Shown one piece after another: positions 40,207-64,000 of a stretch of DNA of 64,000 nt. Origin of the DNA: Branchiostoma floridae (lineage: Eukaryota; Chordata; Leptocardii; Amphioxiformes; Branchiostomatidae); contig NW_023365773.1 in assembly GCF_000003815.2 (NCBI RefSeq), positions 192,882-256,881 of the forward strand, given 5' to 3'. The notes beneath the pieces were generated by a model. It did no database searches and was not told where the DNA came from. It worked only from the letters and a program-made list of their open reading frames with translations. Made by a program: the position numbers and the translations under genes. Each line of letters starts with the position of its first letter. Within the stretch, counting starts at the first letter, position 1.

Positions 40207-40852
40207 CTACAGAAAAACAAACAAACAAACAAACATGTTTAGTCTTCTGTTGGACAGTATGGGTACTCATTGGTATACAGCATAAGGGGTAGCTGTGAAC
40301 ATAACGTAATAAAAATCAAGAAAAAGACATGCTAGAAATAAAGCTAGTTTTACACACTGCCAATTAGAAATGACATTTTTCGTTTTTGAGTTGTTATTTA
40401 AGAGAACTATTGGCAATTGGAACAAGAACTGAACTAAAAACTTTTTGCAAATACTGTATGGGGTATTAGAATTCAATACAGGAAGGCACTGTAGTATTCT
40501 CTGTTCAAACCAGGAAGTTATAACCTTGGTTGAAAAAAGGAGTTGAAAGCAGCACAGTTAAAAGCCTGCAGCAGGCTTATTAACATAATTTATCCAATTT
40601 TTTGTTATTCACTTGAAAAATCCATGTTTCAATTCAGCTGTTTCAAATTAAGGTAGCTAAATACAAAAGTGTAGAATACTTTTCTTTGTTCTTTGTAACT
40701 GATATGATGAAATGAAACATATCCACCTAAATTGATATATTTTGTCAGAAATTTACCACAAACAGTGGGTACTTTCAAACCTTATTTGAGAATCATTCAT
40801 ATCAAAGGAAAATTTAACCAATACAGGGCATATATTCAACCCATTTTTTGGA

Positions 40853-40899
40853 CACCCCTACAATGAGCACTACACAATGTGTCAGCAGCTCAAGGGGTG
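40853..40899 (+). other. Hairpin copy, variant CACCCC:GGGGTG with GAGC:GCTC
   Basis: Outer stem six pairs and inner stem GAGC:GCTC around ACTACACAATGTGTCAGCA. The inner pair differs from the common AAGC:GCTT by a compensatory A-U to G-C change. The outer stem gains one C and one G together. Confidence 0.6.
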
Positions 40900-41043
40900 A
40901 GAAAAATCCAAGAAAAGTACTGTTGAGGAAACCTTTGAAGCCTTAACTTACAGTACATTAGGACACCCTGTATTAAGTGCTAGAATTCAAGAAAGGAAGG
41001 CAATGTAGTATGTCCACTTTTCTCTGTTGAAACCAGGAGGATA

Positions 41044-41188
41044 TACTGTAAATGCAGAAATGTTCATGGTGGTTTGATTTTTCCATTATAGTATACTATG
41101 AGAATACAGTCTATGGCGCTACCACGAAATCTCCATTTTCCTGCTACTGCGAAATTAAATCTCCGCAAACTTAAATGCATTTACAGTA
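41044..41188. mobile_element. Family D MITE in the array
   Basis: Starts TACTGTAAATGCAGAAATG and ends TTAAATGCATTTACAGTA. The interior has CATGGTGGTTTGA and CTACCACGAAATCTCC blocks typical of the family. Confidence 0.7.
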
Positions 41189-42583
41189 TCCCTCTTGGTT
41201 GAAAACAGCACAGTTTAAATGCCTCCAGTGGCCTCATTATCATAATTTATCCAATTATTTGTCATTCATAAGAAAATCCATGTTTCAATCCAGCTGTTTC
41301 AAATTAAGGTAGCTAAGACACAAGGGTGTATGACAGTGTCTTATTTCGGTAATTGGTGAGATGAAATGGAGCATATTTACCTAAATTGATATCTTTGGTC
41401 AAAAATTGACCACAAACAGTGGTTACGTCCAAATCTTTGGGAACATATGCCATTTTCCCATGAAGTTTTACATCGGTAGCTACTTTTCTAAGCTAGATAT
41501 TTTTTGGACACCCCTACATGAGCACTACACAATGTGTCAGCAGCTCAAGGGGTGAGAAAAATACAAGGTACTGTTGTGGAAAACTTTATAACTTTAATTC
41601 ACAGTACTTTTGGACTTCAGAATTCAAGAATTAGAATTCAAGAAAGGAAGGCACTGTAGAATGTCCACTTTTCTCTGTTGAAACCAGGAGGATATAACAC
41701 CACATATTAAATGCCTCCAACAAGCCTCATTATCATAATTTATCCATTTATTTGTCATTTACACAAAAATCCATGTTTCAATCCAGCTGTTTCAAATTAA
41801 GGTAGCTAAGACACAAAGGTGTAGGACAGTTTCTTATTTTGATAAATGATGAAATGAAATGAAGCATATCCCCCTAAATTGATATATTCAGTCAGAAATC
41901 GACCACAAACAGTGGTTACTTCCAAATCTTTTGGAACATATGCCATTTTCCCATGCAGTTTCACATCGGTAGCTACTTTTCTAAGCTAGATATTTTTTGG
42001 ACACCCCTACATGAGCACTACACAATGTGTCAGCAGCTCAAGGGGTGAGAAAAATACAAGGAAGCATTTAGACATTGAAACTCTTTTTGCTCCACAAAGA
42101 GTAATGTTACAGAAACCTGAACTCAACCAAGTGAGATATGTATGTATGTCGTCCTATGGTTGAAAGTATGGCATGGGTATTCATTAGTATACATGTAAAG
42201 GGTAAGACATAGCTGTGAAAATCACATAAGTGTGAACAAGATAGGGGTAAAAATCAAACAAATTTGAACGATATGAAAGAGGTGAGAAACTCCCAGCTTG
42301 CTTCTGTCCCGACCTCATTAACATAATTTATCCAATAATTTGTTATTTACCTCAAAATCTATTTTTCAATTCAGCTTTTCCAAAACAATGTGGCTAAAAT
42401 ATAAAAATGCAAACAGATTTTTTGTTGAGGACAATTACTTTGCTTAAAACAAAATCTACTCAACTCAAGCTTAACTTTTGTTAAACCTGACCACAAATAG
42501 TTGGCGTATCCAAACTATTTAGACCTTGTCATTAACTCTACTCAGGCGAGATATTGTGATTTCGCATATTTGACATTTTTTGG

Positions 42584-42625
42584 GCCCCATGAGCACTGCA
42601 CAATGTGTAAGCAGCTCAAGAGGGC
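42584..42625 (+). other. Hairpin copy, variant GCCC:GGGC
   Basis: Outer stem GCCC:GGGC replaces CACCC:GGGTG, both sides changed together. The inner stem is GAGC:GCTC. Confidence 0.55.
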
Positions 42626-43306
42626 GACAATAAATGAAGAAAATACATACATGTATGTACCATGATGCATGTGAATGCACTTAAATGCATTGCACTACAA
42701 TTGTACATGGTACAATGTATGGCAATGACTCTTACACAAAGTACAAAATAAAGGTATAGACTAATGATAGAGTAAAGCTTAATTAACACCCTAATTACTA
42801 CAGTAATAAGGGTTCAGTATAACTTTTGATATGTATATGTTATGTATGACAATGTGTACTAGATATATGTATGGGCGAAAAAACCTGAACACTGTGATGT
42901 TTCAGACCTCTAAGATCATTAACATAATTTATTCACAATTACAAAACCAAAGCAAACGATGTCTTTCCAACTGTTAAGGAGAGAAAGTTATAGCAGAATG
43001 AAAATTTTGAAAAATTCATTTTAGTGTAACAATCCATTTATTAAGAAATCCAGCTGTTAATATGAGCTTCACTGGTTTGGAAGTCACTTATGTCACCACA
43101 AACATTTAAGATGAACATAAAGACTTGCTGAATGGCAGGCATGATTGCACCATACCTTGAGGATACCTTGATGATATCTCTATTTTTGGGCATCCAGACA
43201 AGCTTTAAGTAGCTGTCAAGGGTGATAACAGTGATGAAAGATATGACAAAGTAGTCTCAGGCTGAGAAAATTGCAAAACAGGCTATACTGTATACATGAA
43301 ATATGA

Positions 43307-43466: not shown

Positions 43467-46391
43467 ACTGTTGGGAACAGCCCTTAAAGCCAGGTCAAAA
43501 GCTCATTAACATAATTTATGCACAAATTCAAAACTCACTTAAAATCTATGTCAGCCTTCACACATTCAAAAACTGTAGGCAGTTAAACGAGCAATAGTGC
43601 TACATAGTATCTTTCTGAGTTATAAACTCAAGCACCACATGACAGTATCACTTGGAAATAGCTTTGAACCATAATCATCCCACAAGACCATATTGTAACA
43701 TAGACATATAAAATTATCTTATATCCAGTTTTGATTACTCTCATATTTTTGGAGACCCTTGTAAGCACTACACAAAGTGTCAGCAGCTGAAGGGGTGCAA
43801 TAAAGTAAAAGCAGAGCCTCATTAACATAATTTATGCATTATTGACATATATGCACAAAACACAATTTTATTCATAGATACAATGTTCTGCAAGTAAAGT
43901 GACACTAGTGTTAGAGGTTTCTTTGCTAGAGTAACAATTATGATAACATGAAAGACTTTTACTACCTTACACCTCTTCCCAACTATGAAAACTTGGGTCT
44001 TATATACATGTACCTCTATTGACATGGGGTAACCTAGCTGGAATTGTACCCACAAAGAGAATAAAGGTAATAAAAATGATGTATAATTAAGTATATGCTA
44101 CCTAAGATGTCATTCTTAACAGAACTTATTTGGCTGCTTGCTTTATTTGCAAGTAATGTAATAGGAATGATGACACTGCACTAAATTGTCAGTAAATGAA
44201 GAGGTGTATGAATTCAAAGCAAAGCCCATACCATACCTCATTAACATAATTTATGTAGCATGGAAATTTTAGCACAGAAGACCATTTTAGAATTGTGCTG
44301 TTCATAATTTATGGAAAGCAAAGAGACAATAGTATTATGGGGTTTCATTGCTAGAATAAGTCTTAGTCTGAAATGAAACATATTGACTACAAAATACATT
44401 TCAACTGTTATCAAACCACAAATGCACATGGTCATTTAACTCCATTCGGTGAGGGGTAAAGTCAGCTACATTGAAGTATGTTGAAATTGATCAAAGTGAA
44501 TTTTTGCGGACCCTTGCACTGGCACAAGTGTCAGTAGCAAAAAGGGGTGATGAGAAGCAAAGGAAAATTTATTCTAGTGGTTGTCTGAAATGTGCCACAA
44601 TTTACTTTATATTACTAGTACATGACATTCTATGGTTTTACCACCTATGGGAATGCCTACATTGCCTCACTAGGAAGTGTTAATTGTTTATTGTTCATTG
44701 ACTCCTTTAGTGTTGCTAATTAATTACTGACATCCTTGATTTGTCAATTCAATTTTAGAAACATTCATGGTAACTAGTCAACTTCCCATCAACCCAATTA
44801 TTTGATAACTCTTCTGCCCCCCTTCTTGCTTCAATACCATGAAATACCCCCCCCCCCCCTTTCTGCCAACAGCTAGAATTACCAACCGCAATATTAAATG
44901 GACTTACAGTTGCTAATTTTTGCATACCTTACAATATTCAGTAGCTTTCTAGGGTAATGATTATATTCGAGATTGAAGAATTAGCGGTGGTATAAAATGT
45001 GAAAACTGTGGTATCACATGGCTTCTTTCCCTCATTAACATAATTTATGTACGCTTAGAAAACCTAAGTAAAATGCAATTTCACTGCTTCCATGATCATA
45101 GTCTAGATGCATACAGCAATGTTGGTGCTATAACATATAATTTTCATCACATGAATATAACCATCAACAAGTCAATTGAGCAGAGCTTGTTCAGGAACCA
45201 AACAAAAACCACAAAAAAGTAGGTCATGTATGTCCGATACTAATGCACAGGTTGTTGTTTGATCTTTACTTACTTACTTACTTAGCTATTTTTGGGCACC
45301 CCAGCATTCTTTAAGTAGATGTGTGGGGTGACGATATAAATTTCAAAAGAAGACTAACAATGGCACAACTGAAAGAATTATGATCACATACACTTATAGC
45401 TACTGTGTGCCGTCTACCTCATTAACATAATTTATGCAACAGAGTAAGATTCGTGTCAAAATCATAACCAAAATCAGCTCCTTTTAAGGAAGACAATCAA
45501 CATAATTTGTATATCACAAACCGTCCTTTGTACCATGATTATAACTGTCAAGTCATACGGTCACTAATCTTAATCTTGACGTATTAACGTCATGACCACA
45601 AATACTTATCTAATATAACTCCAAAGGCTGCATTTGAGGACAATTTAACATTATACGCAACATTTCTAATATGTGATTTTTTGGATCACCCACAAGCACT
45701 GCACAATGTGCTAGCAGCTTCATAAGGGTGATAAAAAAGAAAAAAAAGGCAAACAAACGTGAACCAAGAACAATTTCATGCTACTTTAAGAAGTACTACC
45801 TTTCTTTCTTTGTCACTGAAAATCACTATGGTTTTGTGTGTATCCTGCTAAAATTGCCATTGCAGGGCCCTAGGCAAAGGAAGTCTTTGCTGTAATATAA
45901 TGCAGTACAGTAATAAAACAGAAAGCATTTTCGTGGAGTCAAGATTTTTCTGAGCCATTCAGAAAAGCAGCTTCCATACAGTCATACCACAATTGAAAGA
46001 ATTATGATTACAAAAACCTGTAGCTACAGTCAAACTGCACAATTGTATGGCTTCTACCTTCATTAAGATAATCTATGCTGCACAGCAAAATTCATGTCAA
46101 AAATCACTATCAAGATCAGCTCCTTTACAGTAACACATTCAGAGTAATTCGTCATCCACAAACCGTCCATTGTACCATGATTATAAATGTCAAGTCATAC
46201 GGTCACTAATCGTAATCTTCATCTAATACGTCATGACCACAAATGATTATCTGATATAACTCTAGAGTATCATATAATATAACTGATAGAGCGATACATA
46301 ACATGTGCTTTTTTTGGACACCCTCAAGCACTGCACAATGTGTCAGCAGCTTACTTAAAAGGGTGATAAAAAATCAAAAGAGGGCTCAGGG

Positions 46392-47014: not shown

Positions 47015-47423
47015 TACAACAGAAAGCAAAGTTGTGGAGTTAAGATATTTTTGTTGAGCCATCCAAAAAAGCAGCTTGCCTACACATTACCAGAAAGACC
47101 TAAGGGGTATCCAGGCCCTACAGGACTCATTGTCTGTTGCCTTACCCTCATTAACATAATTTATGCACAGTTGCAAAATCCATGAAAAAACAAAAAATAT
47201 GGCCTGTCTATAGACAAATAGGTGCAGTGAAACCAAAGGGATATTACACCGTGTATTTAGAGAGAGTTTAAAAGTATCTATGGTATAACACAACAATGTA
47301 TAAATAATGTACAATGACAAAAGGACCACGTCCATCAATTGTTACATATCATATCAAAGACCTACAGTTATACTTTCATGCCTAACCGCGATGCCGCGGA
47401 TGTCAATCAAATTGAATTTTTGA

Positions 47424-47471
47424 GGCCCAACCAGCGAGCACTGCACAAAGTGTCAGCAGCTTGCAGTGGCC
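47424..47471 (+). other. Hairpin copy, variant GGCC:GGCC with CGAGC:GCTTG
   Basis: Outer stem GGCC pairs with GGCC. The inner stem is extended by one pair and includes one G-U wobble. The loop core CACTGCACAAAGTGTCAGCA is kept. Confidence 0.55.
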
Positions 47472-47740: not shown

Positions 47741-50423
47741 TTGGGTGGGCCGACTACTCTCTCATCGCAGCCAGGGGCTGAATTTCGGGGAGCTTACAGT
47801 CGAGCTGAAATTCGGCGCCACTCAGGTGACCTAAATACGACAGTAGGACTGAGGGGGTTGGGCTATACATTGTCTTCACCTCCTTAAGATGAATAGGTAG
47901 GGTATTAAAGCTATAGATTTCCTCAGTGTCACTGGCTAAAGAAAGGGGCCAATATGGCTTGTACCCTCATTAACATAATTTATGCAGCAGTGCAAAAGCC
48001 ACTTCAAAAACCATATTAATGCTCAGCTCAGTCACTTTTGGACATTCAGAGCAATTTGCCTTCCACAGACTGTCTTTTCTGTGATAACTACATAAGTAAA
48101 ATCATACAGTCACTCTTGTTATGCTTCACCTAATAGAGCCACACCACAAAGAATCATCCACTATGACTCCAGTGGATGGGATAATGCTGTGAGCTTCTGT
48201 GTTAGTTACGCCAACATAACTTTGAACGTTTTTTTTGGACACCCAACAAGCACTGCACAAAGTGTCAGCAGCTTAAAGGGTGACAAATGTAAACACAAGG
48301 AAAACAGACACCCAAAATGAAATCAGGAGATTTATCACAGAATTGATGCTGTTGAATAATATCCATGTCCAAAATCATAGCTATGCCCAGCAGAATTACA
48401 AGTAGACATCCAGAGCAATAGGTCTTTCACAGACTGCATTTTTGTGACAATTATAAATGTAACATCATACGGTCACTCATCCTCTGCTTCACCTAGTATG
48501 TCAGCACCACAAATACTCGCATATGAAAACTCGTCTGTATAAGTTCATGCTGATGAAAACAGTGTTACTGCTTCTAGTAACGTTAACTGAATGATAAAAG
48601 AAAACAGACATTCTCCAGTGTCATCATTAACATAATTTATGCAGTAGTGCAAAAGCCACCTCAAAAACCATATCAATGCTCAGCTGAGTCATTCTTGGAT
48701 ATTCAGAGCAATTCAAATTCTACAGACTGTCTGTTCTGTGACAATGATATATGTAACATCATACAGTCACTCTTCTTATGCTTCAGCTAACAGGCCACCA
48801 CCACAAATAATCATCTACTACAACACCAATGGATGGGATAATGCCCTCTGCTTCTGTGTTACTTTGAAACCAATTTTTTGGACACCCCAGAAGCACTGCA
48901 CAATGTGTCAGCAGCTTAAAAGGGTGACAAAAGTTAACACAAAGAAAACAGACACCCAACATGAAATCAGGAAAAATGACCTCATTAAAATAATTTATGC
49001 TGTTGAATAATATCCATGTCCAAAATCATAGCTATGATCAGCAGATGTACAATTCAACATTCAGAGCGAACAATCTTTCACAGACTGCTTTTTTGCGATA
49101 ATTACATATGTAATATCATACGTTCACTCATGATATGCTCCAGCTAGTGTGTAAGCACCATAAATACTTACATGTCAAAACTTCACTGTATGAGTTTATA
49201 TTGATAAAACACTGTGCTACTGCTTCTAGTAACGTTAACTGAATGATCTTTTGGGGCACCCAGAAAACTGACACTCAACAGTTGGCTCATTAACATAATT
49301 TATGCAGTAGTGAAAAAAACCCTCAAAAATCATATCTATACTCAGTTGAGTCACACTTGAACATTCATAGCAATTTGTCTTCCACAGACAGTCATCTTAG
49401 TGATAGTTATAAACGTATCATCATACAGACAGTCATGTTATGCTTCAACTAGTACATCAACACCACAAACAATTATCCGTTCTAACTTCAATAGTCTATA
49501 TTGGTTTCGTACGGTTTCTTTGTTATTCAAACGTTAAAACAACTATTTTTGGACACCCACAAGCACTGCACAATGTGTCAGCAGCTTATAAGGGTGACAA
49601 AAGTAAACACAAAGAAAACAGACACCCAAAATGAAATCAGGAGATTTATCACAGAATTTATGCTGTTGAATAATAACCATGTCCAAAATCATAGCTATGC
49701 CCAGCAGAATTACAAGTAGACATCCAGAGCAATAGGTCTTTCACAGACTGCATTTTTGTGACAATTATAAATGTAACATCATACGGTCACTCATCCTCTG
49801 CTTCACCTAGTATGTCAGCACCACAAATACTCGCATATGAAAACTCGTCTGTATAAGTTCATGCTGATGAAAACAGTGTTACTGCTTCTAGTAACGTTAA
49901 CTGAATGATAAAAGAAAACAGACATTCTCCAGTGTCATCATTAACATAATTTATGCAGTAGTGCAAAAGCCACCTCAAAAACCATATCAACGCTCAGCTG
50001 AGTCATTCTTGGATATTCAGAGCAATTCAAATTCTACAGACTGTCTGTTCTGTGACAATGATATATGTAACATCATACAGTCACTCTTCTTATGCTTCAC
50101 CTAACAGGCCACCACCACAAATAATCATCTACTACAACACCAATGAATGGGATAATGCCCTCTGCTTCTGTGTTACTTTGAAACCGATTTTTTGGACACC
50201 CCAGAAGCACTGCACAATGTGTCAGCAGCTTAAAGGGTGACAAAAGTAAACACAAAGAAAACAGACACCCAACATGAAATCAGGAGATATGACATGTGCC
50301 CTCATTAACATAATTTATGCTGTTGAATAATATCCATGTCCAAATTCCTAGCCATGATCAGCAGACTTACAAAAACACATTCAGAGCGAACAATCTTTCA
50401 CAGACTGCTTTTTTGCGATAATT

Positions 50424-51104: not shown

Positions 51105-51498
51105 GTAAAATGCAAATGAACAGAGATGTAAAGGACTATGAATGCTGAACTTTTGCTGTACTATATGTTTTTGTACCATGTATATGTTGATAGATTCATC
51201 AGGACTTGATGTAATCTGTATCTCTGTTATATTTCATCTGACCGTTACCTCCCTCATGACCTCAATGAAAAGCGGCCTGCTGACCGATTGAGCTTCTCAT
51301 GAATAAACAAAAACAAGCAAACAAATTGCTTAGAATGTCTAAGTGTAAATCTGATATACATATACATACACAAAGTTTATTTTGACTGGATGGCCATGAT
51401 GATATTTGGCATAAGCACAGGTCAATATTATTTCTTGCTAGGTGTTTGTTTTCTTTGTTTTATCTTTTATCACCCTTATAAGCTGCTGACACATTGTG
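51105..51498. repeat. Left arm of 394-bp inverted duplication
   Basis: Reverse complement of 52223-52616 with equal length and no difference noticed on reading. It ends at the assembly gap within a hairpin copy (CTGCTGACACATTGTG). Confidence 0.85.
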
Positions 51499-51598
51499 NN
51501 NNNNNNNNNNNNNNNNNNNNNNNNNNNNNNNNNNNNNNNNNNNNNNNNNNNNNNNNNNNNNNNNNNNNNNNNNNNNNNNNNNNNNNNNNNNNNNNNNN
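51499..51598. other. Assembly gap (100 N)
   Basis: The gap abuts the inner end of an inverted repeat arm. Palindromic structure is a likely reason for the break. Confidence 0.95.
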
Positions 51599-51712
51599 GG
51601 TTCTTCGTTTCTTGTTGTCTTTGTTTAAAACACTATTTTTGGACACCCACAAGCACTGCACTATGTGTCAGCAGCTTATAAGGGTGATAAAAATCAAAAG
51701 AGGGCAAACACT

Positions 51713-51884: not shown

Positions 51885-52222
51885 AAAACAGGCACCAATC
51901 AAGAAATCAGGCCAATAGGGCTTGTGTCCTCATTAACATAATTTATGCAGTAAGGCACTATCCATGGGAAAAATCATAGTTAATGTCAGCTGATTTGCAA
52001 TTAGACATTTACAGCAATCAGTCTTTCACGGATTGCAATTTTTGCGTGCAAATTATAAACGTAACAAGATATGATCACTCGTGGCTATGCTTTATCTTTA
52101 TAAGAAAACCACAAATACTTGCCTGTTAAAATTCCATCGGATGAGATTATACTCCACGCCACATTGCCGATTCATTGCCGAGTCGAAAACTGAAACATTT
52201 TTTTTGGCACCCACAAGCACTG

Positions 52223-52616
52223 CACAATGTGTCAGCAGCTTATAAGGGTGATAAAAGATAAAACAAAGAAAACAAACACCTAGCAAGAAATAATATTGAC
52301 CTGTGCTTATGCCAAATATCATCATGGCCATCCAGTCAAAATAAACTTTGTGTATGTATATGTATATCAGATTTACACTTAGACATTCTAAGCAATTTGT
52401 TTGCTTGTTTTTGTTTATTCATGAGAAGCTCAATCGGTCAGCAGGCCGCTTTTCATTGAGGTCATGAGGGAGGTAACGGTCAGATGAAATATAACAGAGA
52501 TACAGATTACATCAAGTCCTGATGAATCTATCAACATATACATGGTACAAAAACATATAGTACAGCAAAAGTTCAGCATTCATAGTCCTTTACATCTCTG
52601 TTCATTTGCATTTTAC
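52223..52616. repeat. Right arm of 394-bp inverted duplication
   Basis: It carries the hairpin tail and then the dispersed repeat (TTCATGAGAAGCTCAATCGG, GAGGTCATGAGGGAGGTAAC) also seen at 8056-8180. Confidence 0.85.
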
Positions 52617-53170
52617 ACACTGCCTTTTCTGTGTGATTATTATAACTGAAACATAATATGGCACTTGTCTTATGACTCTGCTAAAAGTTCACAAAATAAA
52701 TTACAAAGAAAGCACATGTACACATGAAGCTACCTAATCAGAGAAAAACTCAAAGTGTTTTTGGGGCTGCATGTTACTTAGGTTCTGTATTATGATGATA
52801 ATGCGATGGAAAAGCATATTTACAGTGTCTAGTTTTGCTGCGACCTGTAGCAAAGAAGGTTGCCTATACCTAAGGGGTGTGTCTCCTGTTGCCTCATTAA
52901 CATAATATATGCACACACGAAAATCCATCAAAGAACACAAAATATGGGTCGTGTATCAGCAAACCAATGCAGTGATATCACTAGAGATGTTATACAGTGT
53001 GTTTTGAGAGGGCTTCAATGTCTATGTGGTATTGATAGATGCATAAAAGGATGTATTAATAATTTGTAATGACTAAGACACCACAACCAGTAAGTGATAA
53101 CTTAAACATCTAATCTCTTTCTTTGCTATACCTCATTTGTCAATCATTTAGTAATCATGAAATTTTTGAA

Positions 53171-53215
53171 GTCCCGCCCAACGAGCACTGCACCATGTGT
53201 AGCAGCTTGTGGGAC
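53171..53215 (+). other. Hairpin copy, variant GTCCC:GGGAC
   Basis: Outer stem GTCCC:GGGAC and inner CGAGC:GCTTG. It lies just left of the hAT-like element that holds the LTR retrotransposon. Confidence 0.55.
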
Positions 53216-53544
53216 GATTTAGTAAACAAAGAAGGAAAACATATTGTCAACATGTGTCCAGCACAGGCACATTGTATTATATATCAGGGCTCGAAATACT
53301 GGGTGCATGTGCACCCAGGTGCACCCAAAATTGGACCTGTGCACCCAATTATTTTTTGTGGGTGCACCCAGATATTTTTTGACACATGTATGTAAAGATA
53401 TCAAAGTAGACTAAGTATACATCATATTCTTGACATCTAAGTGTTAGAAAGATATTAAAAATGTTTGTCATGGTACTTGTTTAAGGATTTGATAGCCTGT
53501 AGTTTTAGTTATAAGTTTTATTATTAGTTTATTACTTAGATTTA

Positions 53545-53761
53545 AGTAAGAATAGAGCTAACACCCCTACCCATTGTAATAGAATAGCCCATCATGCATA
53601 TTCAGAAGCAAGCCACCAAGAGAAGCTGAGACCTGAGATTCTCTCTCTTTGCCATCTGGACTGCATTGAGCATATACACGCTTTGTACGTACTAACCATA
53701 AGTAGAATAAAACCATGGAAATGCAGTGAATCTGTGGTAATTCATGACGTACAAAGTAACA
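53545..53761 (+). repeat. 5' LTR, missing its first 10 bases
   Basis: 217 bp with no difference noticed from 58404-58620. The 3' LTR starts TGTTACACAG ten bases earlier, but the corresponding bases here are unrelated. It contains the AATAAA-like GTAGAATAAAACC and ends AAAGTAACA. Confidence 0.85.
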
Positions 53762-53775
53762 TGGTGTCAGAAGTG
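53762..53775 (+). other. Primer-binding site, tRNA-Leu type
   Basis: TGGTGTCAGAAGTG directly follows the LTR end and is complementary to the 3' end of metazoan tRNA-Leu(CAA) including CCA. SURL-type Ty3/gypsy elements use tRNA-Leu. Confidence 0.7.
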
Positions 53776-54266
53776 CCCTTCAGCAAGTTCAGGAGAAACT
53801 GAGAAAAAAAGGAGCAGAAGACAGAAGAAGAAGACAGAAGAAGACAGTCTCAAGTCAAGACGGAAGGACAGAGAGAGCCAAAGTCGACTGCTAAGGAGGC
53901 AGCTAAGTCTAATGTCTTTCTTCAAAGATAGCATCCAAAGAATGCTAGTCTAAGGAGCTCCAGAGAACTTGAATGTGAAGAATTGTGAAGAATTTCCATT
54001 GTGAAATTGTGAAGAATTTCTAGACAGTCTGAGCCAGGCATGTGCGCAGGCATAACGGCTCCATTGTCTTAGCGTGTCCTAGTTCCAAGGACAAATTCCT
54101 TACCGTCTGGAAAGTTGACAGGTAGGAACTCTGCTAAAGAGCATGATCTAAGGTCAGAGGTGCCAGGAACAAGCATATGTCAATGTCTAGTTACCGTGCC
54201 GGCAAGTGACAGCATCAAAACAAGCACAGGCGGCAGGTCAGGCAAAGGACATTTGTTGAAGTAAAC

Positions 54267-57200
54267 ATGGCAGATAGTCGTCTATTACCGGTGCCCAAAC
54301 CTGTAGAACTGACAGGAGATGTATCAGAAAATTGGGAAATTTTCAAAGATGAATGGGCCAGCTATGAGATTGCTACAGAGAAGAACAAGAAACCAAAGGA
54401 AATCCGAGTAGCAACACTGAAGACCGTAATTGGTAGAGATTGCCTGGACATTCTAAGGAACTTAGATATTCCAGCAGACCCTGGTCAGCCAGATGCAGAC
54501 CCCAGGCAAGACCCAGATAAGATTATAGACGCCTTAGATAAGCACTTCAAGCCTCTGAAGAACACTGTATACGAGAGATACAAGTTCAATACCTGTGAAC
54601 AAGCACCAGGAGAAAGTATTGAAGTGTACGTGGCTCGCTTGAGGAAACTAGTGTCTACATGTGAGTATGGCGCTCTGAAAGAGGAGATGCTGCGCGATAG
54701 AATCGTGCTCGGAATCTGCGATAACAAGGTGAGAATGCGACTGTTAAAGCAGAAAAACCTCACATTGCAAGCAGCACTAGAAGAGTGCAAGACAAGTGAG
54801 ACAACAAACAAACAGATCAAGGCAATGCAGACTGCAGAGACAGTGCATTATGCCAAGACAAAGCCAAATCCAAGTCAAGGCAAAGCAAAGACAAAGTTCC
54901 AGCAGCCACACAGAAGGATGCAACCACAAGTTAACAACTGCAGTTACTGTGGAAGAGCCCATGCTAGAGACAAGGGTAAATGCCCAGCATTTGGAAAGAA
55001 ATGCGCGAAGTGCGAAAGGCCCAACCACTTCGCCCGGGTTTGCAAAGCATCCAGCAAGAAGATAAACATGGTACAAGACAACGTGGCAGAAGATGACGAA
55101 GAAGTGTACACTGTAGGCTCTGTGTCAAGCAATAACAAGAAATGGTACATAGACCTGAAGATGAGTGATGGAAAATCTCTAAGCTGTCAGATTGACACAG
55201 GAGCTACATGCAATGTGATTAGCGAAGATGACTTCCGGAAGTTCGGGCACAAGATGAAACCAAGTAAAGCCAGATTGAAGCTATATGATGGTTCTATCCT
55301 TAAGCCAGTAGGGCAAGGCATCTTGAAGACGAGACATCAAGACAGTATCATAGATCTGGAATTCCAGATTGTCAAGACACGTCAGAATCCTCTACTGTCA
55401 GCTGAAACATGTACCAAATTAGGACTGATCACCCTAAACACGGTCAACCAAGTCAACAACAGCAAGACAGAACAGATAGTTGAGGAGTACGCAGACGTCT
55501 TTGAAGGATTGGGATGCCTCCCAGGAGAATATCACATTGAGATTGACAAAGAAGCAAAACCAGTACAGCATCTACCACGACGGGTACCTGTTCCTTTGAA
55601 AGCGGAACTGAAGAAGAAAATCGACGAACTAGAGAAGAAACAAGTGATTGCCAGAGTCACGAAACCGACGGAGTGGATCTCAAGTATGGTTGTCGTAAAG
55701 AAACCAGGCAAGATGAGAATATGCCTAGACCCCAAGGATCTTAACATGGCACTACACCGACCGAAGTACCAGATCCCCACCCTTGATGAAGTCCTACCAA
55801 GGCTTGCCAAGGCCAAAGTGTTCTCAGTGCTAGATGCCAAAGACGGATTTTGGCAGGTCAAGTTAGATGAGGAGAGCAGCTATCTAACCACATTTTGGAC
55901 GCCGTTCGGCCGATTCCGGTGGTGTCGCATGCCCTTTGGGATTTCCACCGCTCCTGAAGAATACCAAAGAAGACAGCACGAGGTACTGGAAGGTCTACAG
56001 GGAGTTGACGTCATCGCTGATGACATACTGGTCTTCGGATGTGGTGAAACTGAAGAGGAAGCTGACAGAGACCACGATGAAAATCTGCGTAACCTGCTCA
56101 AACGCGCACGAGAGAAGAATCTGAAACTAAACAAGCGAAAATTGAGGCTCAAGTTAAAGCAAGTGCCATACATGGGACAGCTACTAACGGCAGATGGCCT
56201 GAAACCAGACCCAGAAAAGGTCAAGGCTATCACAGAGATGAAGACGCCAGATGATCTCCGATCTCTACAGAGGTTCCTCGGAATGGTCAATTACCTCGCT
56301 AAGTTCTTGCCACACCTGTCTGATGTGTGCGAACCACTGAGACGGCTAACAGACAAAGACGCAGTCTGGGTATGGCTTGAAACACATGACCAAGCAGTGA
56401 AAGAGGTCAAGAAGCTGGTGACAGCACAGCCAGTACTACAATACTACGACGTAGAGAAAGAGGTGACCATACAGGGAGATGCAAGCGACAAGGGACTTGG
56501 AGCGGCGCTCCTGCAGGAAGGACGCCCGGTAGCGTATGCTTCGCGAGCTCTAACCCCGACAGAACAGAACTATGCGCAGATCGAGAAAGAGTGCTTAGCA
56601 ATTGTCTTTGCAGCACAGAAGTTCAACCAGTACATCCACGGCCGAGAAGTGGTAACTGTACAATCAGATCACAAGCCTTTGGAAGTGATTTTTAAGAAGC
56701 CTCTCCTCGACGCACCGAAGAGGCTACAAAGAATGATGCTCCGTCTGCAGAAATACCACCTAAAGGTGACGTACCGTAAAGGTTCAGAAATGTATATCGC
56801 AGACACTCTCTCAAGAGCCTACCTGACGAGGACCATGAACGAGACTAGGCGAGACGAGTATGAGATACTCAAGATCCAGGAAGCAAAGAAAGAGGATCAA
56901 GAAATCGAACAAGTAACACCCGCTGAGTACATCCAAGTGTCCGATATGACGATAGACAGGGTACGTCGACACACTCAGCAAGATGAAGTCATGAGAGAAT
57001 TGATGAAGACAATAAAGAAAGGATGGCCAGAAAACAAGACGCAGCTTAAGAAAGAAGTCCGTGACTATTGGACATTCAGGGACGAAGTCAGCATGCACGA
57101 TGGCATTGTATACAAGGGACAAGCGATAGTCGTCCCAGCAGAGCTGCGAGAAGAGATGATACAGAAGACACATGCCAGCCACCAAGGAGCAGAAGCATGT

Positions 57201-58231
57201 ATCAGACGAGCCAGAGAAACCANNNNNNNNNNNNNNNNNNNNNNNNNNNNNNNNNNNNNNNNNNNNNNNNNNNNNNNNNNNNNNNNNNNNNNNNNNNNNN
57301 NNNNNNNNNNNNNNNNNNNNNNNNNNNNNNNNNNNNNNNNNNNNNNNNNNNNNNNNNNNNNNNNNNNNNNNNNNNNNNNNNNNNNNNNNNNNNNNNNNNN
57401 NNNNNNNNNNNNNNNNNNNNNNNNNNNNNNNNNNNNGCTTCACCAGAATAGCGCCTAGCCAAGAATGTGATACACAAGACCAAGCAGACTTTCAGCAGAC
57501 ATGGAATACCCATGGAAGTTGTCACCGACAACGGACCCCAGTTTGCATCAGAGGAGTTCAAGCAATTCGCAAAGATGTGGAACTTTCGACATGTGACAAC
57601 ATCACCGTATCACAGTCAAGCCAACGGCAAAGCAGAATCGGCAGTAAAGATTGCCAAGAACCTGCTTAAGAAAGCAGCAGCAGATGGACAGGACCCCTGG
57701 GTCTCCATCTTGGCATGGAGGAACACTCCAACCCAAGGACAAGGCAGCAGTCCTACGCAACGACTAATGTCAAGAAGGACGCGAACGCAAGTGCCAATCA
57801 ACACACAAGCACTAGAGCCAAAGGTAGTACCGAACGTCCACAATAACATCAACAAGAGAAAGGCCAGAGCGAAGAGGTATTACGACAAAGGCACGAGAAG
57901 TCTTCCACCAATACAACCAGGACAACAAGTGCGTGTAGAGTTAACACCACAGAAAGCAGCACAGTGGAAATATGGCACGTGTGTGCAACGTGTAGCACCA
58001 AAGTCGTACGAAGTAGAAGTCGACGGAGCCAAGTACAGGAGAAACCGAAAGCACATACGCGACACAACAGAAGAACAGAAACCATCCACAGATGTAGATG
58101 AGACAACAACAGCTCCAGCAACTGCAACACCAGAGTCGACAGCAGAAACAACGACAACTACGACTGAACCAACGCCGTATGTCACACGGTCAGGCCGAAC
58201 TGTAAAAGCGCCAGACCGTATGGACTTGTAA
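54267..58231 (+). CDS. Ty3/gypsy-like Gag-Pol polyprotein, interrupted by an assembly gap
   Basis: ATG at 54267 opens one fused frame to the gap at 57223. Residues about 1-270 are Gag, with two zinc knuckles (CX2CX3HX6C at about 224 and CX2CX4HX4C at about 245). Protease follows with DTGA near 308. Reverse transcriptase has LDAKDGFWQ near 521 and the catalytic block IADDILVF near 582. RNase H begins near 735 (GDASDKGLGA). The integrase zinc region (H-A-S-H) lies near 968. After the gap another frame (57437-58231) holds DNGPQF and SPYHSQANGKAE, the second Asp region and Glu of the DDE integrase, then a basic C-terminal domain. The frame differs across the gap because the N count is nominal. 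A TAG at 57449 in the downstream frame is either a real defect or a gap-edge error. Similar to the Mag/SURL group, which is inference from domain order and primer site. Confidence 0.88.
57223..57436. other. Assembly gap (214 N) within integrase
   Basis: The integrase core including the first catalytic Asp falls in this gap. Not a multiple of three. Confidence 0.95.
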
Positions 58232-58380
58232 AATGAACTGGAAACAAAACTATGATCATGGACTGTGAATGGACAACGAATATGGACACTGGACTCTGAT
58301 AGATTTCAAGTTTAGTGATAATGCATGCCAGCTAAAGATAATGCATGAAAGTTCAAGAGAAAGGAACTAACATATTTTGT

Positions 58381-58393
58381 AAAGAAAAGGGGA
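58381..58393 (+). other. Polypurine tract
   Basis: AAAGAAAAGGGGA immediately precedes TGTTACA of the 3' LTR, the expected plus-strand primer site. Confidence 0.8.
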
Positions 58394-58620
58394 TGTTACA
58401 CAGAGTAAGAATAGAGCTAACACCCCTACCCATTGTAATAGAATAGCCCATCATGCATATTCAGAAGCAAGCCACCAAGAGAAGCTGAGACCTGAGATTC
58501 TCTCTCTTTGCCATCTGGACTGCATTGAGCATATACACGCTTTGTACGTACTAACCATAAGTAGAATAAAACCATGGAAATGCAGTGAATCTGTGGTAAT
58601 TCATGACGTACAAAGTAACA
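58394..58620 (+). repeat. 3' LTR, complete (227 bp)
   Basis: TGTTACACAG...AAAGTAACA with TG/CA ends inside a short inverted repeat (TGTTAC/GTAACA). No difference from the 5' LTR over 217 bases was noticed, so insertion was recent. Confidence 0.88.
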
Positions 58621-59425
58621 GTGCACCCAAAAAATTTTCGGTGCACCCAATTTTTCAAGCTGGGTGCACCAGTGCACCTAATCCCAAAAATGAATTTCGA
58701 GTCCTGTATTGTCAACATGTGTTCACCATAGACACATTGTATTATGTATAAATGTTCCAGTAGACCAAGGACGTTATAGACACATACATTTTTGTTACAA
58801 GAACATACTAGTAGTAATCAATATTTGAATAAAAGGACCATAACTAGTTTAAGATCCAAGAAACAACCACGAAGTATGATTAAACACCGCTGTAGGCTTG
58901 TGCAAACGATGAAACAATGGCCCAATTTGCACACTGTACACACATTCTTGCATAGACTTGGTGTTAACTTGGTGACTAAGTAATACTTGTGTAAATCGGG
59001 ACAAAGTGGTTTGTACCTTCATAACTACAATTCATGCAGAAGGAAAAAATTCATGTCGAAAATCTGTGTCTAGAAAAGTACTACATGTACTGTAGTATCT
59101 TACCTAATACAGGTCATGCAAGCCCATATTAGGCAGGTCTGTCTACTGCATCCTCATTAACATAATATATGCAGAAAGGAAAAAGTTGTAAAAAAAACAC
59201 AAAATATGGTTTCTTTTTCAGCAAATCAATGAAGTGAAATCTAGGTGGGCATCACACAGCATATTTTCAGAGGCTTTGATGTTTCTATGACATAACAAAA
59301 CAAGTTATTACATATTTACAATGACAAAAGCACCACACCAATTAAGTGATATCGTACACACTTAATGATTTTCTTTCCCGTAAACTTTAATTCAAGTGAC
59401 AAAACGAATTTTGAAAATTTTTGAA

Positions 59426-59476
59426 GTCCCCACCTCACGAGCACTGCACAATGTGTTAGCAGCTTGTAATGGGGAC
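59426..59476 (+). other. Hairpin copy, variant GTCCCC:GGGGAC
   Basis: Six-pair outer stem and inner CGAGC:GCTTG around ACTGCACAATGTGTTAGCA. Close relative of the 53171 copy but with one extra compensating pair. Confidence 0.55.
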
Positions 59477-59965: not shown

Positions 59966-59982
59966 AAGTGGCAGTAGATATG

Positions 59983-60157: not shown

Positions 60158-61010
60158 GTAGACAAACGTAAGGTAAAAATGATATCTATGCTTAACTATT
60201 TCACAGTAAAACATTAAGACCAATTCATTTTTTATCTGTCTTTTCTGTGATAATCATGAACATAATGTCATACAGTCATTCAATTTTGTTATGCTTAAAG
60301 TTATAAATAAATAAATAAACCTACAAGCACAAAACCACAACTAATTACCTCATATACTGGGTATCTTAAATGGATATGCTTATGCAAACTTGTTAGAACT
60401 TGTATGTTTCATCTCATGATTCATTTTTGTACACCCACAAGCACAGCAAAATGTGCCAGCAGCTTAAAGAGTGACAAAATCAAAACAAATGGGAAACATA
60501 TGCTATCCCAATAGGAAGCATATCAGTAGTGTTTTGATTGCTGTAGCCTCACGAAGTTTTCCACGAAATCGTCTTCCGGGAGGGACGTAAAACGGGGGTC
60601 CCGTGCTCGAGGAGGTGCCTCGACCACGTTAAACAGCCTCATTACTCATACTTTGGGTACCTACTGGCTGGCAAAATACACCAGATGATTATTATTATTA
60701 TATCATTCAGACTTCTGTGGCTGTGCCTTAACCTCATTAACATAATCTATGCACAACTGAAAAATCCACAACAGAACACAAATTAGTGTTTAATCATTGG
60801 CAAATTTAGGCAGTCAGACCAATATAAGTATTACTCAGTGTATTTTGAGAGGGTTCCAATGTATCTATGGTGTAATTTGATGATATGTGGGCAGGTTGAA
60901 ATGAAAGAAAGACCATGACCATACACTTATACATATTGGTATAAAGACCTACAGTTATTTCTTTTCTGCACAACGGAAATCAACATGTTTTGAGTTGATC
61001 AATTTTTGTG

Positions 61011-61038
61011 GCCCCCAGCAAGCGACCACCTTGGGGGC
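61011..61038 (+). other. Hairpin copy, variant GCCCCC:GGGGGC with shortened loop
   Basis: The conserved apical part has been lost but the base is still a perfect six-pair stem, in the normal position after TTTTTGTG. Confidence 0.45.
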
Positions 61039-61171
61039 GATTTAAGTCAAAGGAAACAAACATAGAGTAGTACACAACACATTTGTAGAAGCAGTGTAAC
61101 ATTACATTAGGTCACACTGACTTCATTCTAAGATGCCATCCGCGTTCGCATTGAATGACCACATATCACCC

Positions 61172-61383: not shown

Positions 61384-61407
61384 TATCAATCATAATTTCA
61401 TGCTTAC

Positions 61408-61478
61408 CGGAGGACCTGCTCTCCAGGGTAGGGGTGCACATGATCAGGGCATGGGGCCACTGCGCCCTTGTGCTCCCT
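61408..61478 (-). other. Exon-like segment, product unknown
   Basis: On the minus strand 71 bases between TTTAAAG and a strong donor GTAAGC are GC-richer than the surroundings and open in one frame (REHKGAVAPCPDHVHPYPGE). It does not match the FBXO3 segment expected here. It could be an exon of an unrecognised gene or of a nested transcript. Confidence 0.25.
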
Positions 61479-62238
61479 CTTTAAACATTGAATGGCAATA
61501 CAAACATGATTGAAATGGCAGCAATTGTCTCTTACAGTCTTACTGGAGGTGAACAAGACAAAGTAAGCCTTGGAAAAACGGTCTGGATGTTTAATCCTGT
61601 GGTTTAACAGCACTTTTTATTTTTGCTGGATTTTTCTTTTTTTCCCCCTATTCTTTAGTTTTGTAGTCTCCAAAGGATGTCATCCATAAATTCAAGTCGG
61701 TGTGGCCTTATAATATTAGATAAATAAACTCTGTTCTATCATCGCATGGAAACAGCCAGACTGCAAGAGATCCTACCTGTACCCGCAGAATACAATGTAT
61801 TATATTCTCTCTCTATATATATACATGACTTACCCGTTTGTCCCAATGCTATATTTCTCCCAGAACCTTGCCAAAAGGCTTGCTGGCTCAGCCTTATTAA
61901 CATAATTTATGCCCAAATAGAAAATCGATGTACAACACATTACTTGTCCAATTAGCAACGAATATATGTGATTGAACAAGTAAATGTGTCATATTGAGTG
62001 CCTTGGGAGACTTTCATTGTATGTTTAGAGTAAACAATAATATATAACTAGTTTGTAATAGTACAAAGACCACATCTATGTGATGCTGTTACTGAAGCTA
62101 ACAAGTGTAATGCCCCTAATATGCTTGTTCTTGTGATCTTATAATATATCTGATTAGTATCACTTATTTTTGGTACCCAACAAGCACTGTCACCATGTGT
62201 CAGCAGCTTAAGGGGTGATGAACAATCAAATGTAAATA

Positions 62239-63351
62239 CAGTAGAAGTCGCTTATTAGGGAAGGCCATTTGCCAGCTAAATTTTCCCGACTAACCGGCGT
62301 TCCCGATTAAAAGATGTTGCTCGAAATGACCCGAGTGGGGATGGGGGAGGGGGGCATCGGTGAACGCATCGCACGCATTGACACAAAGAATACAACACAA
62401 TCATTTCTACCACAAATAATCAAGTCCATAATTTCATTAAACTCCACAAATATACTTATTAGCCACTTTCAGCTTAAAATTTATCTTTTATCGGTAATTG
62501 TGATATTGTTATCACATTTTAGTGTCGAAGAACGAATCGCGATGCATCAAAAGATCTGTTACGTTTCGTCTATAGTATCGGCTTGAAGAAAACAAAGAAA
62601 TTAACACTGCTAAAACACGTTAAGCTACCGAAAAAAACGAGGTACATATGCAAACGTATTCTAAATTTGCCAAATGAACAATTGTTTTGATTCATAGAGG
62701 ACTGATCAAGGGTACAGTGCACGCGCTTACTACGTAAGATTTGTTGTCGACATGTGATACACAGACGAAAAACATCGCTACGTTGTAGGACGAAAACGCT
62801 CTTGGTTTTCAGACAAACTTTATGTACTAGGCGAAAATACTCATGACTAACGCATAAATAAACTGTTAATCTTCATATCTACAAATTTTCCAGTTACGAT
62901 GTCCACAGATTACACTGAAATTTTGCCACAGTCAACAGCGTCATTTTCAAAACATTTCCATCACGAAAACAAAGATGGCGGACGCGGCGTCATGTGTAGT
63001 ATCCCATGATTCTCTGCGGCAACCGCCGGGCCGCGCGCTAGCGACGTAAATTGAATAGAAATCGCGGCCTTTTCGGACTCAAAACAGGCAGTTTTGATAC
63101 TTTTGACGATCTGATATCTTTATACGGGAAAATTTTGGTTCATTCCTGCTGATTCTGGTGATTTGTTTGGCATATTTCGGGGTTAACATGCGTTGTAACT
63201 TGAATTTTTTTCCCGATTAGCCGATTTGGGCTTTGCAAATATGGGGTGCTGTAAACAATAGCGCCAATGGGAAATGGTTTTGGATTTCAAAATTCTTTGC
63301 AACTAACCGATTTTTGCGACTAAGCGTATTGCAAATAGCTGGCTTCCACTG
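62239..63351. mobile_element. 1.1-kb pogo-like element (family E) with a CpG-rich promoter-like core
   Basis: CAGTAGAAGTCGCTTATTAG at the left and TAGCTGGCTTCCACTG at the right, TA on both sides. It is much longer than the 175-bp relatives at 34869 and 46842. No transposase frame was seen. The core at 62968-63060 is GC-rich and contains AAGATGGCGGACGCGG (YY1-like) and CCCATGATTCTCTGCGG, which resemble promoter motifs. Confidence 0.6.
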
Positions 63352-63805
63352 TATTTGCAAACTAATATAATGTTTTTCTTCACATGATGCAGTCTTGATC
63401 TACCACTAACAGATAGTGTAAATGTTTTTGAACAAGTCAAATCGTTTAGATACTTGGGGGTCTTCCTAATTTCCTTCAGAACTATTCTGAGTATGTGACA
63501 TGCCTTGTCCAATCAAAGGGCTTTCTGACTTGACCTCATTAACATAATTTATGTACAATTGCAAAAGTCATGTAAAGACTTTTTATCACTTAGCTTTACA
63601 CGAATGTAGGCAGTGAAACAGATAAATTAAAGCAATTTATAGTTTTTTTCTGAGGTTGATGTTTACAAGAATAGATTATTAAGATCAGTTCTACAAAACA
63701 CTACCGAAGACACCCACAACACAAAAACATTCAGTAGATGGATTTATCTTTTACATTGACAAGAATTGCTTTGTAACGAAATGTAACGAAACAAATTTTT
63801 GGTTG

Positions 63806-63846
63806 CACCCTAAGGCACTGCACAATGTGTCAGCAGCCTAAGGGTG
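63806..63846 (+). other. Hairpin copy, variant AGGC:GCCT
   Basis: Outer CACCC:GGGTG kept; inner stem AGGC:GCCT, a compensatory change from AAGC:GCTT. Loop CACTGCACAATGTGTCAGCA unchanged. Confidence 0.55.
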
Positions 63847-64000
63847 GCAATGATAAACTAAAAGTCAGTAAGACATCTGGAGTACATATACAGTACAGTA
63901 GAACACTCTTTCGTTGACTTCAAAAAGGCTTCCAGACTCAACCTCCAAGCATGATTAATGTAAAATTGCAAAAGCCATGACAAAAACAACATTTTATAGT

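What the first reader, a model, noticed from the sequence alone, without database searches (positions are those of the whole stretch)
40578..63850. A tandem array carries a hairpin preserved by compensatory base changes
Seen directly: about 20 copies of a stem-loop with loop core CACTGCACAATGTGTCAGCA. Outer stems vary as CACCC:GGGTG, CACCCC:GGGGTG, TCACCC:GGGTGA, GCCC:GGGC, GGCC:GGCC, GTCCC:GGGAC, GTCCCC:GGGGAC and GCCCCC:GGGGGC. Inner stems vary as AAGC:GCTT, GAGC:GCTC, CGAGC:GCTTG and AGGC:GCCT. Many independent double changes keep pairing while the flanks have diverged, which random satellite decay does not predict. It could be a structured RNA family, an RNA-processing signal or a DNA hairpin used in amplification. 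I do not recognise it as a known class.
Basis: seen in the sequence. Interest (0 to 1): 0.92.

Follow-up and report, generated by a model that had tools for sequence, protein, structure and literature searches.

The report
Clustered genes for small Sm-class RNAs
The repeated hairpin looks like the 3' end of a small RNA made by a tandem cluster of genes built like spliceosomal snRNA genes, an apparently undescribed family of predicted Sm-binding RNAs whose job is still unknown.

Summary
In detail: a one-strand array of the hairpin fills 40.6-63.9 kb and runs on past the window to about C215:281.9 kb. The hairpin is one part of a small gene. A unit has a 19-base box (CATTAACATAATTTATGCA), ACCACAAA about 175 bases later, a variable 5' arm, an Sm-like site (mostly ATTTTTG), the hairpin and a 3'-box-like tail. 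The two boxes are snRNA promoter elements of this genome: the U12 gene has the first box exactly at -248 and ACCACACA at -59, U11 has both at the array's spacing, and part of the U1 and U5 loci have one or the other. The U11 start puts the array RNAs at about 80 nt. I found 76 units with the full layout: 41 in this array, 35 elsewhere. A covariance model trained only on the others found 28 of the 41 here and nothing in the first 40 kb. Pairing is kept by independent double changes (at least 9 at one pair, at least 3 in the window). No Rfam family matches the units. Best reading: a lineage-specific family of Pol II, Sm-class snRNA-type genes. Transcription, Sm binding and function are not shown; the 5' arms diverge like spacer, so a guide role is conjecture.

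The parts
40578..40899 (+). unit 1: DSE 40578-40596, PSE 40755-40762, predicted RNA 40812-40899, Sm-like site 40843-40849, hairpin 40853-40899
41235..41554 (+). unit 2: DSE 41235-41253, PSE 41409-41416, RNA 41466-41554, Sm 41499-41505, hairpin 41509-41554
41728..42047 (+). unit 3: DSE 41728-41746, PSE 41902-41909, RNA 41959-42047, Sm 41992-41998, hairpin 42002-42047
42316..42625 (+). unit 4: PSE 42490-42497, RNA 42547-42625, Sm 42575-42581, hairpin 42584-42625 (G:C closing variant)
42917..43224 (+). unit 5: PSE 43095-43102, RNA 43152-43224, Sm 43182-43187, hairpin 43191-43224 (different apical loop)
43504..43796 (+). unit 6: PSE 43679-43686, RNA 43736-43796, Sm 43745-43750, hairpin 43755-43796 (arm only 9 nt)
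43820..43838 (+). DSE without a recognised PSE or Sm-like site (relic?)
44239..44546 (+). unit 7: PSE 44415-44422, RNA 44472-44546, Sm 44500-44505, hairpin 44511-44546
45033..45330 (+). unit 8: PSE 45208-45215, RNA 45265-45330, Sm 45288-45293, hairpin 45297-45330 (different apical loop)
45420..45732 (+). unit 9: PSE 45595-45602, RNA 45652-45732, Sm 45676-45682, hairpin 45685-45732
46061..46365 (+). unit 10: PSE 46236-46243, RNA 46293-46365, Sm 46308-46315, hairpin 46319-46365 (end set by eye; the script ran on to 46384)
47149..47471 (+). unit 11: PSE 47325-47332, RNA 47382-47471, Sm 47416-47421, hairpin 47424-47471 (GGCC:GGCC)
47968..48282 (+). unit 12: PSE 48143-48150, RNA 48200-48282, Sm 48228-48236, hairpin 48240-48282
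48625..48926 (+). unit 13: PSE 48800-48807, RNA 48857-48926, Sm 48873-48879, hairpin 48883-48926
48983..49001 (+). DSE-like box of a degenerate unit without a proper 3' hairpin
49288..49596 (+). unit 14: PSE 49462-49469, RNA 49519-49596, Sm 49545-49550, hairpin 49554-49596
49939..50239 (+). unit 15 (near copy of unit 13): PSE 50114-50121, RNA 50171-50239, Sm 50187-50193, hairpin 50197-50239
50303..50321 (+). DSE of a unit interrupted downstream (no PSE or Sm-like site found)
51633..51708 (+). 3' part of a unit next to an N gap: Sm-like site and hairpin, found by a model trained on other chromosomes (27.2 bits, E 0.047)
51931..52250 (+). unit 16: PSE 52108-52115, RNA 52165-52250, Sm 52197-52205, hairpin 52208-52250
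52895..53215 (+). unit 17: PSE 53080-53087, RNA 53137-53215, Sm 53162-53167, hairpin 53171-53215 (GTCCC:GGGAC)
59155..59476 (+). unit 18: PSE 59332-59339, RNA 59389-59476, Sm 59417-59422, hairpin 59426-59476 (GTCCCC:GGGGAC)
60334..60473 (+). partial unit read by eye: ACCACAAC, TTTTTG and hairpin with core 60442-60461; no DSE found
60735..61041 (+). unit 19: PSE about 60918-60925 (poor match), RNA about 60975-61041, Sm 61002-61007, hairpin about 61008-61041
61895..62217 (+). unit 20: PSE 62069-62076, RNA 62126-62217, Sm 62166-62171, hairpin 62174-62217
63537..63851 (+). unit 21: PSE 63713-63720, RNA 63770-63851, Sm 63795-63800, hairpin 63802-63851. The array continues beyond 64000 (20 more full-layout units, to C215:281899).

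Best explanation
The array is a cluster of RNA polymerase II snRNA-type genes for a family of small Sm-class RNAs. Shown by sequence: an enhancer-like distal element (DSE) at about -232, a proximal element (PSE) at about -57, a variable 5' arm (9-63 nt, median 29), an Sm-like site, a 3' terminal hairpin kept by compensatory change, and a 3'-box-like tail. Inferred from how snRNA genes of this kind work (recalled): SNAPc and an Oct-type factor start the RNA, Integrator cuts it after the hairpin, the SMN complex loads an Sm ring on the U-run, and the hairpin shields the end of an RNA of about 80 nt. Conjectured, about one in three: the free 5' arm pairs with targets, as in U7 or HSUR RNPs, so the cluster makes a set of Sm RNPs with different arms.
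For: Fixed layout: the PSE lies 174-179 bases from the DSE start in 49 of 59 deduplicated units (searched between 160 and 196 with a slight pull to 175). Same elements at real snRNA genes: U12 (found by its RNA family) has the exact DSE, reversed, at -248..-230 and ACCACACA at -59. U11, picked up by the box pattern but named by Rfam, has the DSE at -233 and ACCACAAA at -57, a 176-base spacing. U1 loci L014-L017 have the box reversed at -268/-266 (shuffle p 0.003 or less), and U2 L023 has it at -319. A PSE-like site lies at -56 to -59 in 14 of 16 U5 loci, 8 of them with shuffle p below 0.05. Two-box pattern: 31 genome hits, 0 with the pattern reversed. PSE, T-run, CACCC-like and GGGTG pattern without the DSE: 13 hits, 0 reversed, all in the C5, C19 and C215 clusters. 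Sm-like site: AATTTTTG in 30 of 59 units; of the other 29, 25 have at least five T followed by G. 3' hairpin z -18.4, spacer controls within about 1 sd; 5' strands against own rather than other units' 3' strands z -9.5, 0 of 5000 permutations; at least 9 double changes at one pair. Model R1, from 24 units off this contig, gave 30 hits at E up to 1 in 93.7 kb: 29 on the + strand, namely 28 of the 41 full-layout units and the partial one at 51633, none in window 1-40000; the 30th, on the minus strand of L011, is no unit. Controls: 2 hits in 121 kb; L001 is an array locus that I included by mistake, L056 lies in the 3' part of a U5 locus. 3' box: AAAGNAG in 17 of 59, shuffles mean 2.9, max 8.
Against: No RNA data exist here: transcription, 5' ends, cap and Sm binding are untested. 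E-values are weak (best 0.0035) and 13 of 41 units were missed. The 5' arms evolve like length-matched spacer. Arms show no excess pairing to U1, U2, U5, U11 or U12. The boxes are not universal at snRNA genes: L013 and L018-L020 of U1 and 5 of 6 distinct U2 upstream rows have no strong DSE match, the U2 rows have no significant PSE match, and the U5 loci have at best a weak DSE match. Units were chosen by the boxes, so box conservation is partly by selection (the invariant CCA wholly). Of the 54 hits of the box-to-ATTTTTG pattern, at least 12 bear box variants (ATTATC or ATTAGC) that I do not count as units. Pair statistics are mixed: pairing at the second-outermost pair does not exceed every shuffle (0.65, max 0.72); own 3' strand is the single best partner in only 9 of 59; on A2 two of five measures are no better than shuffles.
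Confidence: 0.84

Rival explanations
1. A relic array: snRNA-type promoters and hairpins that were duplicated but whose RNAs no longer do anything, or act only as a passive store of Sm protein.
For: 5' arms diverge like spacer; several units in the window are broken or partial (43820, 48983, 50303, 60442).
Against: In 32 disjoint pairs the hairpin (0.72) keeps more identity than the arm (0.54) and the stretch after the gene (0.54); DSE and Sm-like site stand at 0.94 and PSE at 0.86, though units were chosen by those motifs. Hairpins are kept by double changes, so selection acted until recently.
Confidence: 0.12
2. Spliced-leader RNA genes: the arm is a leader exon followed by a splice donor.
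For: Sm-like site, 3' hairpin, snRNA promoter, short RNA and tandem copies fit.
Against: Arms are not conserved between units; no AGGT[AG] and no GT[AG]AG in 59 arms.
Confidence: 0.04
3. Divergent members of a named Sm-RNA family (SmY or U7).
For: SmY-like layout; one unit (L031, minus strand, 3592-3666) gets 23.5 bits to SmY at E 0.58. 5' arms as a group fold a little better than shuffles (z -4.4, 6 of 58 singly).
Against: Below the SmY gathering score of 39; genome-wide SmY and U7 searches gave 0 hits, though both carry a tool warning that nothing rang anywhere. The 5' part is not conserved. The Sm-like site is of the canonical type (recalled).
Confidence: 0.04
4. A mobile element or plain satellite with a chance hairpin.
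For: Tandem, single-strand layout; a box relative (CCTCATTATCATAATTTATGCA) is dispersed in the genome; L043 and L044 are lone close relatives of C15 units.
Against: Most units lie in clusters with set internal spacing, and the same boxes lie at similar places upstream of U11 and U12. The one dispersed CATTATC copy that I read lacks PSE and a believable hairpin (L047).
Confidence: 0.02
5. Pol III genes of the U6 kind.
For: PSE-like element present.
Against: A run of five or more T, a Pol III stop (recalled), sits before the hairpin in 58 of 59 units.
Confidence: 0.02

Closest known systems
Sm-class spliceosomal snRNA genes (U1, U2, U4, U5, U11, U12)
   Same: DSE and PSE, including the exact DSE word of the U12 gene and the DSE-PSE spacing of U11 in this genome; Sm-like site followed by a 3' hairpin; 3'-box-like tail. 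U4 was not looked at
   Different: RNA is only about 80 nt, no Rfam snRNA match, 5' part not conserved, tens of diverged copies in tandem
Nematode SmY RNAs (RF01844; PMC11229312, passages read)
   Same: small multi-copy Sm RNA outside the spliceosome set; 3' hairpin after the Sm site
   Different: SmY has two stem-loops with a conserved first one and is nematode-specific in that paper; here the first part is variable and the Rfam score is below cut-off
U7 snRNA (recalled)
   Same: short 5' arm, Sm site, one 3' hairpin
   Different: U7 has an odd Sm site and a fixed histone-pairing arm; here the site is canonical and the arms vary
HSUR RNAs of herpesvirus saimiri (PMC13158664, only the listing and the start of its abstract seen)
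   Same: small Sm-class RNAs; HSUR1 is said to interact with hundreds of cellular mRNAs
   Different: viral and few in number (recalled); targets of the present RNAs are unknown

Membership tests
Pol II Sm-class snRNA-type gene | PSE near -55/-60 | tested here: met
   ACCACAAA-like element; U11 start is 57 bases after it; U12 at -59, U5 at -56..-59 in 14 of 16, U1 at -56..-59 though weak in part; U2 rows not significant
Pol II Sm-class snRNA-type gene | DSE near -220/-270 | tested here: met
   box identical to the U12 DSE word, close to those of U11, four U1 loci and one U2 row; other U1 and U2 rows lack it
Pol II Sm-class snRNA-type gene | Sm-like site followed by a 3' hairpin | tested here: met
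Pol II Sm-class snRNA-type gene | 3' box | tested here: met
   AAAGNAG in 17 of 59 downstream stretches, shuffles at most 8; a looser form, [AC]AAAAG, 15 of 59, is no better than shuffles. A statistical match to a motif recalled from vertebrates
Pol II Sm-class snRNA-type gene | transcript with TMG cap bound by Sm proteins | not testable with these tools
   no RNA or protein data
SmY RNA | two stem-loops flanking the Sm site, the first with conserved sequence (PMC11229312) | tested here: not met
   arms not conserved; only a weak group signal for a 5' fold
SmY RNA | Rfam RF01844 gathering score 39 | tested here: not met
   best 23.5 bits; genome-wide 0 hits with a tool warning
U7 snRNA | Rfam RF00066 | tested here: inconclusive
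   0 hits, but the tool warns this does not show absence
Spliced-leader RNA | shared leader with splice donor | tested here: not met
   0 of 59 arms with AGGT[AG]; arms not shared
Spliceosomal snRNAs as RNAs | match to the Rfam family | tested here: not met
   window: 0 at gathering score; 40400-64000 up to E 3 only bxd_1 at E 2. Fetched cluster loci up to E 1: only the separate U11 gene reached its cut-off; sub-threshold MIR396, SmY, SNORA51, MIR7993, SNORD46

The most novel reading that the evidence does not exclude
A lineage-specific system of dozens of Sm RNPs with different, freely changing 5' arms that act as guides against many RNA targets, and that arose by multiplying a minor-spliceosome-type (U11/U12) snRNA promoter unit.
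Probability: 0.22. Interest if true: 0.92.

Novelty: new variant of a known kind. Interest (0 to 1): 0.72.

Why it matters
Known cellular Sm-class RNAs are few (from recall: the spliceosomal set, U7, SmY, spliced leaders). A family of at least 76 predicted genes on several chromosomes of one genome (unnamed; probably an animal), sharing promoter words with U11 and U12 but with free-running 5' arms, would be a large addition. It gives ready predictions (RNA ends to within a few bases, Sm pulldown, shared promoter factors) and a setting in which to ask whether Sm RNPs can diversify into guides.

Tried and rejected
Satellite or DNA-hairpin reading: dropped once the boxes were found at U11 and U12 genes. 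Rfam: window 0 families at gathering score; 40400-64000 up to E 3 only bxd_1 at E 2; cluster loci only sub-threshold matches besides U11 (L033, L035, L029-L031 in the first, L009-L011, L032, L034, L037 in the second). tRNA scan: 0. Accelerated evolution of the 5' arm: suggested and by the 40-base spacer (p 0.005), but gone with length-matched controls. Arm pairing to snRNAs: none. A GCGC loop motif (15 of 59; shuffles mean 6.1, max 13) recurs on several chromosomes but I made nothing of it. Inner-stem covariation: the pattern matched only 2 rows, so no result. MAFFT alignment of window hairpins (A1) put the outer stems out of register and was not used for counts. The shuffle test was circular (helices chosen by folding) and was replaced. 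Organism: 513 Mb and chromosome-size contigs made me think of a lancelet (recalled), but a GFP family search meant to support that gave 0 hits, with a tool warning, so the organism stays open. Rows dropped: 109 box-like places gave 94 with a candidate Sm site, 90 with a closed hairpin, 76 after removing by hand or by score those without a believable layout, and 59 after removing near-duplicates (18 in the window, 15 further in this array, 26 elsewhere). Of these, 57 could be anchored for pair counts; 24 of the 26 deduplicated off-contig units went into model R1.


Full report
What is there. In the whole genome (513 Mb, 431 contigs) the 16 matches found with up to 2 mismatches all lie in this stretch (the tool calls such counts lower bounds). 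Reading around the copies showed a second conserved element, CCTCATTAACATAATTTATGCA, about 290 bases upstream of the core. Fetching the neighbouring 30 kb showed that the array goes on: 49 such boxes with up to 4 mismatches, all of them on the same strand in that scan, between 40578 and 88681 in window numbering (one search scanned both strands and found minus-strand look-alikes only at 4 or 5 mismatches), often with different hairpin loops downstream.

Anatomy. A unit reads: box A (CATTAACATAATTTATGCA); box B (ACCACAAA) 174-179 bases after the start of box A in 49 of 59 deduplicated units; a variable stretch; an Sm-like T-run (AATTTTTG in 30 of 59, at least five T then G in 25 of the other 29); a hairpin most often closed by CACCC/GGGTG or a variant; then an A-rich tail. 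A T-run followed by G and then a stable hairpin is the look of an snRNA Sm site and 3' stem-loop (recalled), so I tested the promoter.

Promoter test. I located U1 (23 hits), U2 (30), U5 (16) and U12 (1) in the same genome and read upstream DNA of the loci that came back (8, 8, 16 and 1; near-identical upstream stretches were counted once). U12 has box A letter for letter, reversed, at -248 to -230 and ACCACACA at -59. A pattern of the two boxes at the array spacing gave 31 hits and none when reversed: 18 in this array, 9 in the C5 and C19 clusters and 4 lone ones. One of the lone ones is the U11 gene (Rfam 94.1 bits), with box A at -233 and ACCACAAA at -57. Four U1 loci (L014-L017) carry box A reversed at -268/-266; L013 has only a weak match there and L018-L020 (near-identical) none; one of 6 distinct U2 rows carries it, at -319, and the U2 rows show no significant PSE. 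A PSE-like site lies at -56 to -59 in 14 of 16 U5 loci, 8 with shuffle p below 0.05; their DSE matches are weak at best. So box A serves as a DSE word and box B as a PSE in part of this genome's snRNA-type genes, most clearly U11 and U12, and U11 sets the start 57 bases after the A of ACCACAAA. That gives array RNAs of median 81 nt (range 50-114 over 59 units; the over-long hairpin call at 46061 was corrected by eye in the parts list).

Extent. The same layout occurs on C5 (15.64 Mb), C15 (17.37 Mb) and C19 (9.53 and 9.85 Mb), with single units elsewhere. Altogether 76 units passed my filters: 21 in the window, 20 in the rest of this array, 35 elsewhere. The clusters' outer flanks could not be fetched, so the count is a minimum. 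A covariance model from 24 of the others found 30 places at E up to 1 in 93.7 kb of this contig: 28 of the 41 full-layout units, the partial one at 51633, and one minus-strand place that is no unit; none in window 1-40000. Two hits came up in 121 kb of controls, one of them an array locus included by mistake and the other in the 3' part of a U5 locus. A pattern of PSE, T-run and stem without the DSE gave 13 hits and 0 reversed, all within the C5, C19 and C215 clusters.

Structure. The 3' hairpin is much more stable than dinucleotide shuffles, while spacer controls are not. 5' strands pair better with their own 3' strands than with those of other units (z -9.5), though the own strand is the single best in only 9 of 59. 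At the pair next to CCC/GGG the types are AT 30, GC 7, TA 5, TG 5, GT 3 and 7 unpaired of 57: 88% paired against 56% expected if the sides were independent, and at most 72% in 2000 shuffles; the next two pairs inwards of CCC also exceed every shuffle, the second pair outwards does not, the third is at chance. On a tree made from promoter sequence only, the pair next to CCC/GGG needs at least 9 double changes overall and at least 3 in the window (paired tips only). On the alignment of the 24 off-contig units the outer helix has 80% standard pairs against 75% in shuffles (2 of 500 as high) and a covariation score above every slide by 1 to 3 columns, while the numbers of pairs with double changes and of pair types are no better than shuffles.

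Constraint. In 32 disjoint pairs of related units, mean identity is 0.94 for the DSE and the Sm-like site, 0.86 for the PSE, 0.72 for the hairpin, 0.69 for the 3' box stretch and 0.54 for both the 5' arm and the stretch beyond the gene (pairs were chosen on the DSE-PSE spacer, and units by the boxes, so the box values are partly by selection). With length-matched spacers the arm is neither slower nor faster. As a group the arms fold slightly better than shuffles (z -4.4) but only 6 of 58 do so singly. They show no excess pairing to U1, U2, U5, U11 or U12.

What it is and how it may work. The sequence shows snRNA-type genes with an Sm-like site and a terminal hairpin. That they are transcribed by Pol II, cut by Integrator and loaded with Sm proteins follows from knowledge of such genes (recalled) and is not shown. 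That the arms pair with targets is conjecture; the passive or relic reading is the main rival.

Novelty. Rfam 15 has no family that the units match at its cut-off. Paper searches for amphioxus with snRNA genes and Sm site, Branchiostoma with spliced leader (34), SmY/Sm-class/snRNA (52), amphioxus with snRNA, noncoding RNA and tandem (53), Branchiostoma floridae with U12 snRNA (64), PSE with DSE and Branchiostoma (67), snRNA-like with Sm-class and gene cluster (68) and evolution of spliceosomal snRNA with Branchiostoma floridae (70) listed no paper that, by its title or the start of its abstract, describes such a family; two searches listed only 20 of 91 and 20 of 1,610 papers. Most of these searches assume an organism I could not confirm, and subscription papers are mostly missing from the library.

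Noticed in passing
window 53515-58750: A retroelement-like insertion splits the array between units 17 and 18: a long gag-pol-like open frame (54210-57458) with a repeated flank (the same translated stretch near 53515 and 58383). Observed only.
   Followed up: no
window 51300-51598 and 52100-52420: An inverted copy of the unit 16 region lies against a 100-base N run (51499-51598); it may be an assembly artefact or a real inverted duplication.
   Followed up: no
L023, L039, L064, L014-L017: The U11 and U12 genes, four U1 loci and one U2 locus of this genome share one DSE word, in either orientation.
   Followed up: yes
L040 and L041 (C15:5647900, C16:4085000): DSE-PSE pairs at the array spacing with no Rfam match up to E 1 and no believable Sm site plus hairpin: possible other snRNA-type genes.
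   Followed up: partly
genome-wide; L047: A box relative, CCTCATTATCATAATTTATGCA, is dispersed (2442 places within 3 mismatches of the box, all variants together); the single copy read shows no PSE or believable hairpin.
   Followed up: partly
hairpins in L029, L031, L032, L034, L035 and C215 units 68816-70328, 86812: GCGC(T/A) recurs in the hairpin in 15 of 59 units over several chromosomes (shuffles mean 6.1, max 13).
   Followed up: partly
window 16323-17475: A separate tandem repeat of 197-base units, 6 copies.
   Followed up: no
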